Source: a virus. Taken from it: a stretch of 24,788 nucleotides of DNA. Shown piece by piece: positions 8,694 through 15,352 of the stretch (the stretch's first letter is position 1; each line of letters starts with the position of its first letter). Below the pieces are notes generated by a model. That model was not told the DNA's origin and did no database searches. It saw only the letters and a program-made list of their open reading frames with translations. The stretch covers positions 1 to 24,788 of IMG/VR virus record IMGVR_UViG_3300043464_001323; one strand, 5' to 3'. The position numbers and the translations under genes were made by a program.

Positions 8694-10979
8694 TTATTTG
8701 ATTTTAATTATCGGTGCCGGAATTTCTTCCACTAAGCGCCGAAGTTCAGTTTTGCTTTTCCCTACCATATCAGGCGCCGCAAATAGCTGGCGCTTAGTTG
8801 TGAATTCTCTACTCATAACGCGGCCTAAGTCCTGCCAGCCAGCTTCCTTAAGCGCATGCAATAACGCGGCCTGTGGCACCTTAATTCCAGCCGGTGCCAT
8901 ACCTGCTAGCCGGTCGCATAACGCATAAAACGGCGCCGCGATAACGCCGCTAGAGAATTCGCCCTTGCGCTCTGTTATTTGCTCGACTAAAAACGATTCA
9001 GCCGTTGATCGACCTTGATCAATCATAATCGCTTTTGCTTCTGTCATTGGCGGAGCTGCCGACGGGTTGAAGTTTGAAACATCGCGAGCTGCTAGCCAGT
9101 TTGCAGTTATGGCAAAGCCATTTTGGTTTTCGTACCAGTTCCACAGTTTCATGGCGTCAGCCTCTGGTAGCCGGTTAGCCTCTGCCCACAGGCAAAACCA
9201 GCGCCGGTCGTCCGATGGAATACTGATAGCTGCCCTCTCGTTTGAGAATGCAATAACGAAGACTCGGTTTAGCGCCATGTACGGGTGCAAACCCTTGCGA
9301 TTTATTTGCAGGTATTCAGGTGGCGCCGCGATAATCGGCTTTAATGCGTTTTCTAATGCGCGCCGGTCTTTAGCTTCGCTTTGTCTTAGTTCAGCTATTT
9401 CCATCACTTCACATTCGAGCGCGTAGCCCCACTGCGAATTTAAATCTTCATTGCGCACTAGGGCGCAGTTTGCCTTTGCCGCACCGCCTATCGCCCAGAA
9501 AAAGGGTGCCAGCATGGTGTCTTTACCGCTGCCTGGGTGCCCACCAATTAGGATAGCGTGATTGATTTTATGCGCAGGAAATTGCACCTTGTGAGCCAGT
9601 GCATTTAAAAAATGCTCGCGCTCAAATTCAATCGGGATCATGCGCTCGACATGCTTTAGCCATGGGCTAGCGTCGCCGGTCTTCGGTTCAGGTCTTGCGT
9701 TTCGCCATCTGTTGCCGTACTTCTGGCCGTCACGAAAAACCAATACGTCTTCGCCTGCTGCGTAGGTAATACCGACTAGCGCATGCGCGCCCTGCTCCTG
9801 TCTATTTTCGTCAAACGACGTAGCCGCTTCAACTTGGCGTCCGTTATGGATCGATCGACAGGATATGTGCCGGAAAAGTGCGTTGAAAGTAGATCGAGAA
9901 ATTTCGCGCCGATCATGTAAATCAAAGTAATTTTCGTCGTCTTGAACATAAGCAAACCTTTCAAACCATTGCGCTTTTTCAATACGGCCTAGTTCACGCC
10001 GCTCCACTGCTGCCACAATTGCTGCTGCATCATCTTTAAACATCTCGCTGGGCGTCAGTTTAGATAACGCCTGATCCATTTTCTGCGCGAGTAATTCGTC
10101 TCTGAGCCCAGGTTGGTGTTTTGGACCACCGTTAGCTGCCACCCAGTTAAGGAAAGTGCCAGAGTCAAAGTCTATGCAATGGCTATGCAGGCAGCAATAT
10201 GCGCGGTTTGCTGGCATGTAACGGCCTTCTGGGTTGCCGTCGGTGTGCTCTGCATTGTTTGGACAGATCACGCCTGCCCAGCCTTCGTTATTCGGTTTAG
10301 TTAGTAGCAGGCCATTGTCTGACAGCCACTTCATGACGTCATCGCCGCCGTCATCCGTTAGACGTATCGCATTAGGTTGCAGGCTCACATTTTGAGCTGG
10401 CACAACATTTAGCGCCTTGCAGATTTCGTCTAATGTGTATTCGCGCTCTGGATTAAAGTGAGCAAGCGTAGCCTCAAAATTATCGCGGCCTGGCTTTAAG
10501 TTAACCGAGCCGGGAAGGCGGAAATTACGCACTGGGTTGCAGGCGCCTGGATCAGTGTAACCAGCGTCAGCGATTGCACGTATTGCCGCAGCAAAGTCTT
10601 CTTTTGTAGGCTGCTCGGAAAACGCATAGCCCCACTGGAACGAGCCTGGAGACGTCTCCATAATCCATGTCGGATCAAGTGGTGGAGTTTTTGACTTGGT
10701 GCCGATGTCATCCAACATCATGACCAAAATATATTGGCAGTTTGCCGCGCTGGCGCTCACTTTGCCGTTAAAACGATCGACGATAAAGCTCGCCGTATTG
10801 CCGTACCAAGCCTCACCGGCCTTGCGTTTGTGTGTTGGCATGTACGCAGGCCATGTGCATTTAATCGCACCATCAGCATGAAATTGCATCTCGCCGTTTT
10901 GTAAAATCGGTTTTTGGCGTACAATTAATGCCGTCTCTCCTTCAGGGGCAAGTGAAATTAAGTAATCAATGAATTGCAT
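8694..10979 (-). CDS. Primase-helicase (RepB/AEP-like primase plus SF3/VirE-like helicase)
   Basis: A 761-residue replication enzyme starting at ATG 10979 with GGAGG seven bases upstream. Residues 80-165 look like an archaeo-eukaryotic-type primase: MMLDDIG (87-93) gives the paired acids, and NFRLPGSVNLKPG (152-164) the arginine motif typical of RepB-type primases. Residues about 239-268 hold a Cys/His set (CPNNAEH... CCLHSHC), a likely zinc finger for template binding. The helicase part (about 435-620) has Walker A GGHPGSGKDT (479-488), the acidic VMEIAEL segment, and an arginine-containing sensor (SIPSDDRRWF), the pattern of DUF5906/VirE-like proteins. It would unwind and prime DNA for the polymerase encoded just upstream. 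It is the last gene of its operon. Confidence 0.88.
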   Translation of the reverse strand: MQFIDYLISLAPEGETALIVRQKPILQNGEMQFHADGAIKCTWPAYMPTHKRKAGEAWYGNTASFIVDRFNGKVSASAANCQYILVMMLDDIGTKSKTPPLDPTWIMETSPGSFQWGYAFSEQPTKEDFAAAIRAIADAGYTDPGACNPVRNFRLPGSVNLKPGRDNFEATLAHFNPEREYTLDEICKALNVVPAQNVSLQPNAIRLTDDGGDDVMKWLSDNGLLLTKPNNEGWAGVICPNNAEHTDGNPEGRYMPANRAYCCLHSHCIDFDSGTFLNWVAANGGPKHQPGLRDELLAQKMDQALSKLTPSEMFKDDAAAIVAAVERRELGRIEKAQWFERFAYVQDDENYFDLHDRREISRSTFNALFRHISCRSIHNGRQVEAATSFDENRQEQGAHALVGITYAAGEDVLVFRDGQKYGNRWRNARPEPKTGDASPWLKHVERMIPIEFEREHFLNALAHKVQFPAHKINHAILIGGHPGSGKDTMLAPFFWAIGGAAKANCALVRNEDLNSQWGYALECEVMEIAELRQSEAKDRRALENALKPIIAAPPEYLQINRKGLHPYMALNRVFVIAFSNERAAISIPSDDRRWFCLWAEANRLPEADAMKLWNWYENQNGFAITANWLAARDVSNFNPSAAPPMTEAKAIMIDQGRSTAESFLVEQITERKGEFSSGVIAAPFYALCDRLAGMAPAGIKVPQAALLHALKEAGWQDLGRVMSREFTTKRQLFAAPDMVGKSKTELRRLVEEIPAPIIKIK

Positions 10980-11000: not shown

Positions 11001-11028
11001 CGCCCTGTCTAACCCACAGGGCGTTTTT
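11001..11028 (+). terminator. Terminator-like hairpin oriented against the operon
   Basis: CGCCCTGT (11001-11008) pairs with ACAGGGCG (11016-11023), followed by five T on the plus strand. It sits between the polymerase and primase-helicase genes, both minus strand. In their transcript it is a hairpin with no U-run, so it would stop antisense transcription while at most protecting or attenuating the operon mRNA. Confidence 0.6.
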
Positions 11029-12970
11029 ATTTGCCGTATCGGCTCATTGTCTCGACTTCAGCCGCCAATGGGATGCCTTCTGCCCAGTCTGGCGCAGTAC
11101 ACATGGCGTCTTTCAGTTTATTTTGTGCTTCAGGATCGGCAGTCTCTAAAACAATTTCATCATGCACATGCAGCACGATGTCATCTAATTGGCGTAAAGA
11201 ATGCCTTAACAAATCGTTGGCGATTGCTTGCGTTATATTCTCACAGGCTAGACCCTTCCACAAGCGCGCTCTTGGCCATTCGGTGGCATCAGCCGCAGGT
11301 TTCCACGATGCTTTCAGATAGGAAATACCATCCGCCTCTAATTTAGCGAATGGATAGCAGAGCACGCGCCCGCTTGGCAATGCATACCATAGGTGTTGAC
11401 CGTCAAACAGATAAGTCACTCGCCCAGCCTTAAATTCATGGCCTGGATTGCGCATGGCGCGGGTATAGGCTGATTCGAGCTTCTGCCAGTAGTTAACTGC
11501 CCACTGGTTAGCGCGACGCCACGCATCGACGATTCGACGTGCGTCAGATTCAGCCGTATGAATGCCGTAGTTGCGCCCCATTGCCGCAAAAGCGCCAACA
11601 CCACCGGCAAAACCTAGTGACAGGATAGCGACCTTGCCGATCTGGCGCTGGTCTTTGTCGACATCTTCTTCACGCACGCGGAAAATTCCAGCCGCTTCAC
11701 GTTTGTAAATATCCTTACCTGAACGAAAGACATCTAATACTGACTCGGCGTCAGGATCAGCCGATGCCCAGGGCGTGACACGCGCTTCAATTGCAGACCA
11801 GTCAGCAACGACAAAATGCTTGCCGTCAGCCGGTATCAATGAGGGCCTGAGCATTCCCCTGAGAACATCTGTAACCCGCTTTCCAAATCTTGGGACGATT
11901 GCGTGTCCACGAACCATAGCGTGGCGCACGGCCTCTGGTTCAGCGGCACATTTTCTTGTGAAATTGTGTACCTGAGCTCCGTAACTTGATGCGCGTCCAG
12001 TAGCTGAGCCGCCAGCGAAGACGAACGCGCCGCGAACGCGATGATCTTCTTCGTCTGCAAGGCCGCTAAGCCTGCTGAACTTCGCAACCGACGACGCCCA
12101 TAGGTCATCGGCGCACTGTATAACTTCGGCCACATCGGGCGGAATCTCATCTTTATTCTCCTCAGCGAATGCTAATAAGTTAGCACGTACATTCTTATCG
12201 ATGCTGTATTTCTTTTCGCCGTCTTTATAGACGACCATCAACTTTAGAGCTTCTTCACCTACACGCTCCATCACCCATTTTTTCATGCGTGGGCTGCGAA
12301 CAGAAGTGATATCGCCTTTTGTGACATCCTGCACGATACCTTCAATCTCTTCAAGTTCATCAGACGCGTATCGAATTGCCGCTTCAGCCAATGACACATC
12401 AAGCAGCACGCCACGATCGTTGATTCGTTCATTGACGTGATAATCAGCTAGCTCTGTTTCAGACAATGGACGCATGGCTTTGCTGATCTCACGCATAGTG
12501 CGTACATCCTGCTCACAGTACGCAACCATCTCATCCATTAGCTTAGGGTCGTCATTAAACGAGCCATCAGCGCGGGGGATTGACAGCAAACGAATTAATT
12601 GATTACCGCGATGATCCTTGCGCATGTTGGATGACAGCGCACGACCGATATCCTCTAGGGAACCGGGAAGACAGTTAGCGCGAGCTTGCGCTGCTGTGCA
12701 GATAAATTGTTCAAGCCTGAAATCCACTTGAAGGACATACCAGAATATGAGCCGCTCAAAAGCGGCATTATGTGCATAGACCTGGCCAGTATGGGTACGT
12801 ACGGAATCGGGGAAAGGTTGGGAAGGGAGCCAGGTGACAACCTCATCGTCATCAAAGGCATAGGACATACATAGTACATCCGTGCTTGCATCTTGCGCAT
12901 AGTTATATACCCCGCGTGAAGGTAAGTCGCATTTGCTGCGCGTCTCGAAATCTATCCATAGTATTTTCAT
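11027..12970 (-). CDS. Family A DNA polymerase with 3'-5' exonuclease
   Basis: A replicative polymerase of 647 residues. The N-terminal DnaQ-like proofreading domain has D7-x-E9 (WIDFETRS), the AHNAAFER motif (66-73) and YCEQDVRTM (151-159). The polymerase domain has motif A VVADWSAIEAR (387-397, catalytic D390), motif B R442-x3-K446 with SLGFAGG, and motif C VHDEIVLE (602-609, D604). The GFAGG variant of motif B differs from the FGxxYG of bacterial Pol I but is usual in this phage subfamily as I remember it. There is no 5'-nuclease domain. ATG 12970 overlaps the upstream DUF4338-like gene by 4 bases (ATGA type), so the two are translated together. Confidence 0.95.
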   Translation of the reverse strand: MKILWIDFETRSKCDLPSRGVYNYAQDASTDVLCMSYAFDDDEVVTWLPSQPFPDSVRTHTGQVYAHNAAFERLIFWYVLQVDFRLEQFICTAAQARANCLPGSLEDIGRALSSNMRKDHRGNQLIRLLSIPRADGSFNDDPKLMDEMVAYCEQDVRTMREISKAMRPLSETELADYHVNERINDRGVLLDVSLAEAAIRYASDELEEIEGIVQDVTKGDITSVRSPRMKKWVMERVGEEALKLMVVYKDGEKKYSIDKNVRANLLAFAEENKDEIPPDVAEVIQCADDLWASSVAKFSRLSGLADEEDHRVRGAFVFAGGSATGRASSYGAQVHNFTRKCAAEPEAVRHAMVRGHAIVPRFGKRVTDVLRGMLRPSLIPADGKHFVVADWSAIEARVTPWASADPDAESVLDVFRSGKDIYKREAAGIFRVREEDVDKDQRQIGKVAILSLGFAGGVGAFAAMGRNYGIHTAESDARRIVDAWRRANQWAVNYWQKLESAYTRAMRNPGHEFKAGRVTYLFDGQHLWYALPSGRVLCYPFAKLEADGISYLKASWKPAADATEWPRARLWKGLACENITQAIANDLLRHSLRQLDDIVLHVHDEIVLETADPEAQNKLKDAMCTAPDWAEGIPLAAEVETMSRYGK

Positions 12971-13551
12971 TTTTTAACATTCCACGTCGGTGTATACGAC
13001 GTTGATAATGCAGTTTTTGGTATTTTCTTTGCGTATATCATTTTTATACTAGTCGACATGCGCTCAGATTTATTGTTAAGCCCATTGTGCGTTTTAGTAC
13101 TACCTGCGGTTTCACCTAAATAAACCCAATTATCAGCTAAATATAAAGCCCCTTTGCGATAATCTTCTTCAACAACAAAAGTTTCAAACCCATGCACTTT
13201 AACTTTATATCTATCTTCCCAATCGACACAAATTCTTTTACGCCAACGCGATAAAACAAACGTCGCTAAATTAGGTATATGCGTTTCTAACCTAAATACG
13301 GTGTTGTTTATTATTGAAGGTAACGCAACTTTTTTATTATCCTTGTTTAAACCAAAATATTCATCGCGCGATTTCACCGCCCATACAGAACTAGCGCCAC
13401 TTATTATGCCAACAACGTCATTATCTAGTTTAATAAGATAGTGAAGTTGTTGCCCATGCGTGCCTCTGTTAGGGACGTAATGTCTATTACGAATATCTTG
13501 ATATATAGGGTCGGTTCTTTTACAGCGGATAAGGTCTATATTAAATTTCAT
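12967..13551 (-). CDS. DUF4338 (DruA-type)/Mom-like protein, possible DNA-modification factor
   Basis: 194 residues from ATG 13551 (MKFNIDLIRCKRTDPIYQDI). A GTG at 13578 in the same frame has no spaced ribosome-binding site. The pattern matches DUF4338, the domain of Druantia protein DruA, and the Mom-like acyltransferase-fold group: RNRHYVPNRG (21-30), GQQLHYLI (33-40), VWAVKSRDEYFGL (56-68), LPSIINNTVFRL (77-88), PNLATFVL (93-100), DWEDRY (110-115), GFETFV (121-126) and NWVYLGETAG (141-150). Sampled 60-base lines inside it are 30-33% G+C, against 45-62% in lines from its neighbours, suggesting later acquisition. It lies in the replication operon between the possible ssDNA-binding gene and polymerase. 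Proposed role: modifying phage DNA or countering restriction; unproven. No druB-E genes are nearby, so it is not a Druantia system. Confidence 0.75.
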   Translation of the reverse strand: MKFNIDLIRCKRTDPIYQDIRNRHYVPNRGTHGQQLHYLIKLDNDVVGIISGASSVWAVKSRDEYFGLNKDNKKVALPSIINNTVFRLETHIPNLATFVLSRWRKRICVDWEDRYKVKVHGFETFVVEEDYRKGALYLADNWVYLGETAGSTKTHNGLNNKSERMSTSIKMIYAKKIPKTALSTSYTPTWNVKK

Positions 13552-13552
13552 A

Positions 13553-13588
13553 TTATTTAAGCGGGGTACTCGCTGCACCTTTCGGCAT
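13553..13588 (-). CDS. Putative 11-codon leader peptide coupled to the DUF4338-like gene
   Basis: After the stop of the upstream gene comes GGGGG-AAAGCGG-ATG, an almost ideal ribosome-binding site, opening a frame MPKGAASTPLK that ends with TAA one base before the ATG at 13551. The DUF4338-like gene has no good ribosome-binding site of its own, so ribosomes finishing the leader would restart there. A translational-coupling leader is the simplest reading. It is too short to test by codon use. Confidence 0.45.
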   Translation of the reverse strand: MPKGAASTPLK

Positions 13589-13607
13589 CCGCTTTCCCCC
13601 TAAACCA

Positions 13608-14228
13608 TTATGCGCGACGACGACGTGCAGGTTCAGCAGCTTCTACCTGTTTAGGGGCTTCAGTAGCTTCACCATCCATGCCGATCCATTCGACAATCTC
13701 AAAGACTGGCGTAAAGATACGGCCATAAGATTTATGCTGATAGTGATCTTTCTTCAAACGCACCACTGGTACGGGCTTAGATTGATCCTTCTCAACTTGC
13801 TCAGCGATTGCCACTGCTAATGTCTGCACTGCGCGCTTGCCGCCTACAGAAGTCGTTGTGAAACGCGCTTCTAAGTCTTTATCGCTTCCAGTCGTACACT
13901 TCAATGACATACCTACTTGCGCTTCCCAACCCTTCTTCGCACCTGCTGGAGCTGGTTCCAACTCAGGCAGTGGCTCAGATACAGGAACCATCTTCTCGCC
14001 AAGTACAACAGCATCACCCCAAGCGATAAAACCTTGAACAAAACTAAATGGGTTTACTGCCCATAAAGAATCATCGTCAGTTTCAGTTTGGTCTGCGCCG
14101 TATACCCAATGGCCGGTCTTATCCATCTTGATAATGACTGCACCAACTTGCGCAATATCTTTTTCGAATGCACGCAATGCAGTGGAGAGGGAAGTTACTG
14201 GAGGGAGGTTTGCTAATTCAAATGCCAT
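13608..14228 (-). CDS. Conserved phage protein, possible ssDNA-binding protein
   Basis: 206 residues from ATG 14228 with AAAGGA upstream. The middle (GHWVYGADQTE, SLWAVNPFSFVQGFIAWGD, GWEAQVGMSLKC) and TTTSVGGKRAVQTL, YGRIFTPVFEIVEWIGMDG are conserved, as I recall, in a family of phage hypothetical proteins found next to a RecB-like nuclease and polymerase. The sequence is beta-rich with many aromatics. A Pro/Glu linker lies near residue 90 and the protein ends RRRRA. Position is where related phages carry a single-stranded DNA-binding protein (DUF2815 slot), so I infer that role; the acidic C-terminal tail typical of SSB is absent. It is 11 bases from the upstream nuclease gene. Confidence 0.6.
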   Translation of the reverse strand: MAFELANLPPVTSLSTALRAFEKDIAQVGAVIIKMDKTGHWVYGADQTETDDDSLWAVNPFSFVQGFIAWGDAVVLGEKMVPVSEPLPELEPAPAGAKKGWEAQVGMSLKCTTGSDKDLEARFTTTSVGGKRAVQTLAVAIAEQVEKDQSKPVPVVRLKKDHYQHKSYGRIFTPVFEIVEWIGMDGEATEAPKQVEAAEPARRRRA

Positions 14229-14239
14229 GATATTTTCCT

Positions 14240-15352
14240 TTACTGTAGTTTAGAGAGGGCAGCAGTTAATTGCTTCCCGATTTGTAACACCGCTGGTCTT
14301 GGATCAGTGTCCAATGCCAACGTACTGCCCGAAGAAATCGATACAACTAATTCCTTCGGCAATTCACCGCCGATCTTTTTTAACATCTTCTCGGCTTGCG
14401 CTGGAGAGATAACTTCCAGCTCTTTGTATGGTTCGACAAAAGATTTTAACAGAAACTCTTTTGCCTTCTCTTCATCAGTCCACTGACGTGTGCCACGCTT
14501 AGCGACTAACTTATAGCCTGGTACTGCATGACCATTCTCTAACATCTGGAATGCTAACGCACGTAAGTCTTTAATGTAGTCTTCAATCACATCAGCTTGC
14601 GCTAACTGCATTCCAATCTGATCAGCAGGTAAATTTGTTAGTTGCACTTTCAATGCGCGTTCAACTGCGCCGGTCATCTTAGGACAAATTGGTTTTGCTG
14701 CACACCATCTGCAATGATCCCCCGTCTCCATCTTAGGTTCAGGCCATGATGATTCACGTACAGCCGCAGCTAATTCTTGTTCAAACTGTTGCACTCGTGC
14801 AGGCGTTGTCACCCAACGTCTTACCATTGGTGGCTGCACGATAATACATTCGATTTCTTTTATATCTTTAAATACCCACTCTACTTCTTTAGTTCGCATT
14901 GATGCTGCTGCATAAAATAACAACTGTGGATTTTCTTCTGCTTCAACGGTAACCCCATCACCAAATTTCCAATCCAATACAATAGCGCGATCGCCAATGC
15001 GACCCAGCAAATCAGTTGAACCAAAAACGCCAGGTAAGAAATCACCAAACCCAACTCTACTTTCGACCACGTATTCCATAGTCTGTTCAGGATCGATGTC
15101 ATTGAGGGCTTGCAAAGCGGGAACAATCTTTTCGTCATATAAATCCTGTGTCAAAACTTGGTCTTTATAAGTTGCGCCAATAACTGGTTCACCACCATCC
15201 AGAATTTTAGCTATGACGTCATGTAGTAGCGTGCCACGATCTGCGTGTTCGCTTGACGGTTTAGGCGGCATCTTAGCAACTAAGGCCACTGATGCAGGGC
15301 AGTTGATCACACGTTTAGCAGTTGATCCACCGACGATAGTTGAATGGGACAC
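14240..15352 (-). CDS. RecB/Cas4-type nuclease with Fe-S cysteines (DUF2800-like)
   Basis: A PD-(D/E)XK exonuclease-like protein, first gene of the replication operon. I use GTG 15352, which follows AAAGGAGAG at 4-7 bases. An in-frame ATG at 15409 would add 19 unlikely residues and run across the promoter. With this start there are 370 residues: GTLLH (40-44), GSTDLL (111-116, D114), LDWKFGDG (126-133, D127/K129) and NPQLLFYA (141-148, Q143) form the RecB-family active site. C18 plus C214-x2-C217-x5-C223 match the one-plus-three cysteine layout of Fe-S nucleases such as Cas4 and AddB. Expected role: end resection or recombination during replication. All active-site residues are present. Confidence 0.9.
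   Translation of the reverse strand: MSHSTIVGGSTAKRVINCPASVALVAKMPPKPSSEHADRGTLLHDVIAKILDGGEPVIGATYKDQVLTQDLYDEKIVPALQALNDIDPEQTMEYVVESRVGFGDFLPGVFGSTDLLGRIGDRAIVLDWKFGDGVTVEAEENPQLLFYAAASMRTKEVEWVFKDIKEIECIIVQPPMVRRWVTTPARVQQFEQELAAAVRESSWPEPKMETGDHCRWCAAKPICPKMTGAVERALKVQLTNLPADQIGMQLAQADVIEDYIKDLRALAFQMLENGHAVPGYKLVAKRGTRQWTDEEKAKEFLLKSFVEPYKELEVISPAQAEKMLKKIGGELPKELVVSISSGSTLALDTDPRPAVLQIGKQLTAALSKLQ

What the first reader, a model, noticed from the sequence alone, without database searches (positions are those of the whole stretch)
12967..13588. DruA-type DUF4338/Mom-like gene embedded in a phage replication operon
The protein carries the pattern of DUF4338, the domain of the Druantia defence protein DruA, and of the Mom-like DNA-modification group. 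It is alone (no Druantia partners), lies between a possible SSB and the DNA polymerase, and overlaps the polymerase start by 4 bases. Hand counts of three 60-base lines inside it give 30-33% G+C versus 62% and 45% in lines from its neighbours, a sign of separate origin. A phage using this domain next to its polymerase could be modifying its own DNA as it is made, or be the counterpart from which defence DruA proteins arose.
Basis: partly seen in the sequence, partly recalled or inferred. Interest (0 to 1): 0.75.

Follow-up and report, generated by a model that had tools for sequence, protein, structure and literature searches.

The report
Mom-like DNA-modification gene in phage
This small phage gene belongs to the DruA family and is predicted to fold like Mom, the enzyme with which phage Mu disguises its DNA from bacterial defences; it was dropped recently, as a single gene, into a spot just ahead of the DNA polymerase gene where sister phages carry other DNA-modifying genes.

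Summary
The gene is 12967-13551 (minus strand, ATG start, 194 aa). It matches Pfam DruA/DUF4338 (E 7e-20), is AT-rich (35.7% G+C against 46.2%), sits between an SSB-like gene and a family A polymerase gene, and overlaps the polymerase start by ATGA. Its confident AlphaFold model (pLDDT 87) matches the phage Mu Mom crystal structure best in the PDB. Profile comparison aligns the Mom residue S124 (S124A is inactive) with T97, which is Thr or Ser in 33 of 36 relatives. Very similar genes (76-91%) occur in unrelated phages, with similarity ending at the ORF ends. A sister contig (92.6% DNA identity) has no gene at this position, and a more distant relative (L059) shows the complete empty site. Among 69 distinct relatives with SSB and polymerase, 48 have an empty slot and 21 hold another single ORF, among them C5 methyltransferases, other DNA methyltransferases, two Mom genes, PAPS reductases and HNH nucleases. 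Best reading: interchangeable anti-restriction cargo, probably an acyl-type DNA modification enzyme. The chemistry is untested. The idea that defence DruA descends from phage copies is unsupported. A widespread structured RNA absent from Rfam precedes the gene.

The parts
12967..13551 (-). DruA/DUF4338-family Mom-like gene, 194 aa (P0001)
   Evidence: Pfam DruA E 7e-20; AF2 model pLDDT 87.2; best PDB match Mu Mom 8bv8
12967..12970 (-). ATGA overlap of the druA-like stop and the polymerase start (likely translational coupling)
   Evidence: sequence; most other slot occupants also overlap the polymerase start
13546..13551 (-). ATGAAA at the 5' junction of the insert
   Evidence: L059 empty site has one ATGAAA at the polymerase start
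12965..12970 (-). ATGAAA at the 3' junction (polymerase start)
13563..13600 (-). conserved structured RNA element GGGGGAAAGCGGATGC..GCAGCGAGTACCCC, leader of the slot
   Evidence: at least 119 viral contigs carry the shell; no Rfam match in the window
11027..12970 (-). family A DNA polymerase
   Evidence: Pfam DNA_pol_A, phrog_17 E 1e-94
13608..14228 (-). SSB-like protein upstream of the slot (identity by position)
   Evidence: conserved exo-SSB-pol order in relatives; only phrog_9528 matched
14240..15352 (-). DUF2800 / PD-(D/E)XK exonuclease
   Evidence: Pfam DUF2800 E 1e-53

Best explanation
The gene encodes a small GNAT-fold enzyme of the DruA family, sister to Mom, that most likely transfers an acyl-type group from a CoA-like donor onto bases of the phage's own DNA, so that host nucleases no longer recognise it. 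It was acquired recently as a single ORF and placed between the leader RNA of the polymerase and the polymerase start codon, so it is expressed with the replication genes and is probably translationally coupled to the polymerase. The position is an interchangeable cargo slot in this phage group. Shown here: family, predicted fold, residue conservation, insertion and slot. Inferred: enzymatic activity, DNA as substrate, anti-restriction benefit.
For: DruA family membership. High-confidence model (pLDDT 87.2, pTM 0.84) whose best PDB match is Mu Mom 8bv8 (Foldseek E 4.5e-7; VIA Z 13.5, 165 residues, 3.3 A, next GNAT 12.6) and whose best viral-model match is a Salmonella phage Mom. Profile-profile match to Mom, P 1.5e-5, probability 79%; the Mom HMM picks up at least seven DruA-like genes below cut-off and none of 14 control genomes. 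T97 aligns with Mom S124, Thr/Ser in 33 of 36; N94 aligns with N121, 36 of 36; HY 34 of 36; bacterial DUF4338 proteins keep N and have Ser at the T97 site. Sister phages fill the same slot with C5 methyltransferases, phrog_757 methyltransferases or Mom. Single-gene mobility. Purifying selection.
Against: Mom D149 has no counterpart in DruA-like proteins (read), so chemistry or substrate may differ. Many GNATs score nearly as well as Mom structurally (Z 11.4-12.6). Slot occupants also include HNH nucleases, PAPS reductases and unknown small ORFs, so the slot alone does not prove DNA modification. Three phages carry both genes, so they are not simple substitutes. No biochemical data exist.
Confidence: 0.6

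Rival explanations
1. It is a GNAT that acylates a host protein (for example RNA polymerase or a defence factor) or tRNA during takeover, not DNA.
For: GNAT fold generally; a phiKMV-like phage GNAT acetylates host RNA polymerase (PMC7824862).
Against: Closest fold and profile match is the DNA-modifying Mom, and the slot is shared with DNA methyltransferases and Mom.
Confidence: 0.17
2. It is a selfish single-gene mobile element or homing-type passenger, kept because it spreads.
For: 76-91% identical copies in unrelated phages with similarity ending at the ORF ends; recent empty sites; flanking repeats of 37 and 69 nt at L003 and L006; DUF4338 fused to a DDE transposase; HNH genes use the same slot.
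Against: Flanking repeats are not a general feature (Mann-Whitney P 0.27 against 217 control genes); no nuclease or recombinase domain; strong purifying selection across transfers.
Confidence: 0.12
3. It is a phage-borne DruA-like defence or superinfection-exclusion factor working on its own.
For: Family shared with Druantia DruA.
Against: No Druantia partners found in the window; weak match to the PADLOC DruA1 model (E 0.009); expressed with replication genes by position.
Confidence: 0.08

Closest known systems
Phage Mu Mom (PF25680, PDB 8bv8)
   Same: Predicted fold, HY motif, Asn and Ser/Thr at the N121/S124 positions, RxGxxYxAxNW/F..G motif, single phage gene
   Different: Below the Mom family cut-off by sequence; Mom D149 replaced; early replication slot instead of the Mu com-mom locus; no Com-like regulator annotated
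Druantia DruA (PF14236, DUF4338)
   Same: Same Pfam family, E 7e-20
   Different: No Druantia partner genes found; short stand-alone protein; weak match to the PADLOC DruA1 model
DruA-like proteins of Synechococcus phages (Phold paper, PMC12774648)
   Same: Phage-encoded, structural similarity to DruA
   Different: No sequence match between this gene and any INPHARED phage record
DUF4338 fused to ISAs1-type transposase (Thiodictyon plasmid, L135)
   Same: Same domain with the same Asn and Ser/Thr pattern
   Different: Fused to a DDE transposase, bacterial plasmid

Membership tests
DruA / DUF4338 (PF14236) | Pfam profile above gathering score | tested here: met
   71.7 bits against 27
Druantia system | Partner genes (DruE helicase, DruB/C/D) next to druA | tested here: not met
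   none among ten large window proteins; neighbours are phage replication genes
Mom family (PF25680) | Pfam profile above cut-off | tested here: not met
   no Mom hit for this protein at E below 1; several relatives give sub-threshold hits
Mom family (PF25680) | Mom fold | tested here: met
   best PDB match 8bv8, Z 13.5, Foldseek E 4.5e-7, on a predicted model
Mom family (PF25680) | Hydroxyl residue at the S124 position | tested here: met
   T97 by hhalign, Thr/Ser in 33 of 36
Mom family (PF25680) | Aspartate at the D149 position | tested here: not met
   aligned region differs
Mom family (PF25680) | N6-adenine acyl-type modification of DNA | not testable with these tools
   needs nucleoside mass spectrometry

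The most novel reading that the evidence does not exclude
DruA-family proteins are a second, Mom-like group of DNA base acyl-modifying enzymes with a product different from that of Mom. Stand-alone phage copies use it as protection, and the same chemistry underlies the unexplained role of DruA in Druantia and of DUF4338 domains in transposons.
Probability: 0.35. Interest if true: 0.75.

Novelty: new variant of a known kind. Interest (0 to 1): 0.5.

Why it matters
The papers read here describe DruA as of unknown function. A 194-aa stand-alone relative with a predicted Mom fold and the aligned S124/N121-type residues is a simple protein with which to test whether this family modifies DNA. The SSB-polymerase slot shows how phages exchange single modification genes, and lists candidates in one place.

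Tried and rejected
Target-site duplication as a general insertion signature: clear only at L003 and L006, not significant overall. First structure model from 7 sequences: poor (pLDDT 55), replaced by a 36-sequence model. Search for a solved relative by sequence: none. Relatives in INPHARED phages: none for three family members, and none for a fourth partial one. Relatives of the gene in plasmids: only distant DUF4338 proteins. Genome-collection scan with the close family: one virus-like contig. Rfam for the leader: no match. Papers on Mom chemistry: little held in the library.

Full report
What is there. The window is an IMG/VR virus record of 24788 bases with a portal-like protein, large terminase and spanin and a divergent replication region. 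On the minus strand the order is DUF2800 exonuclease (14240-15352), SSB-like protein (13608-14228), the gene in question, DNA polymerase A (11027-12970) and a VapE/primase-like protein (8694-10979). The gene starts best at ATG 13551, because homology in relatives begins there, giving 194 aa. Pfam assigns it to DruA (E 7.3e-20). Its G+C is 35.7% against 46.2% for the window. In the eleven nearest relatives with both flanks (L001-L006, L009-L011, L021, L022) the gene is also less G+C-rich than its flanks; L026 is the exception.

Mobility. Six IMG/VR contigs encode 76-91% identical proteins. Apart from the gene they share almost nothing with the window, and DNA similarity stops within a few bases of the ORF ends. 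A scan with 12 aligned members found 37 loci. The genome collection gave one virus-like contig with the close-family query. So the close group is essentially viral and moves as one gene. L009, a distant member of the same phage group, has it directly before the exonuclease instead, in frame with it. Flanking repeats are clear in L003 (37 nt) and L006 (69 nt) but not in general, so no duplication mechanism is claimed.

Empty site. Of 80 polymerase relatives, none with a readable SSB-polymerase junction has the gene there. L053 is 92.6% identical to the window over 4.9 kb starting exactly at the polymerase ATG; its contig begins 42 nt upstream, with the 3' half of the leader element and no druA-like gene. 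In L059 the leader runs straight into the polymerase: alignment with the window stops after ATGAAA at the gene start and resumes at the polymerase start, where ATGAAA recurs. The insertion is therefore clean and, judged by L053, recent.

The slot. Among 69 distinct contigs with SSB and polymerase, 48 have a gap of 200 nt or less and 21 hold a single other ORF, nearly all overlapping the polymerase start. By profile: C5 methyltransferase (L054, L106), DNA methyltransferase phrog_757 (L065), Mom (L081, L090), PAPS reductase (L074, L102), HNH (L063, L130). By eye from the translations, L113 resembles L106, L112 and L118 resemble L065, L085 and L101 resemble L074, and L128 and L132 resemble L063. 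L057 has only a weak methyltransferase hit; L056, L120, L121 and L125 are unassigned. About 8 of 21 are DNA modification genes by this count.

Fold and residues. With 36 sequences the model is good (pLDDT 87.2, pTM 0.84). Its best PDB match by both methods is Mu Mom 8bv8, titled inactive mutant S124A (Foldseek E 4.5e-7; VIA Z 13.5, 165 residues, 3.3 A); ordinary GNATs follow at 12.6 and below. The best viral predicted model is a Mom. Profile comparison of the 36 with four Mom proteins gives P 1.5e-5 and puts T97 opposite S124 and N94 opposite N121. T97 is Thr/Ser in 33 of 36, N94 invariant, H24-Y25 in 34, Y137 and W142 invariant. Two bacterial DUF4338 proteins keep H24, Y25, N94, E123 and Y137 and have Ser at the T97 site. 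Mom D149 is not matched. So it works like Mom by fold and aligned residues, but is filed in the DruA family, not in Mom.

Known background. DUF4338 has been called a GNAT domain (PMC10853773). DruA-like proteins were noted in Synechococcus phages by structure (PMC12774648). Mom is described as an acyltransferase acting on adenine N6 in DNA and occurs in jumbo phages (PMC7824862). None of these covers this family, its slot or its mobility, as far as the library shows.

Conclusion. The most likely reading is a mobile, single-gene, Mom-like DNA modification enzyme serving as anti-restriction cargo (0.6). Activity, substrate and benefit are inferred.

Noticed in passing
   Followed up: partly
L122 160-228: The leader insert in this relative resembles a degenerate tRNA (25 bits, Rfam cut-off 29), though ARAGORN calls none.
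   Followed up: partly
L006 5887-5955 and 6610-6678: 69-nt near-identical direct repeat (96%) flanking the druA-like gene, covering the end of an XseB-like gene.
   Followed up: partly
L135 3950-5284; L134 3608-4486: On Thiodictyon plasmids a DUF4338 domain is fused to a DDE transposase, and another copy lies near IS91 and IS4 transposase genes.
   Followed up: partly
L004, L029, L032 source contigs: Three phages with a druA-like gene also encode a Mom protein above the Pfam cut-off, one of them two.
   Followed up: no
L026 3384-3950 and 5001-5588: A 414-kb virus contig has two DUF4338-type paralogs flanking an AAA clamp-loader-like gene.
   Followed up: no
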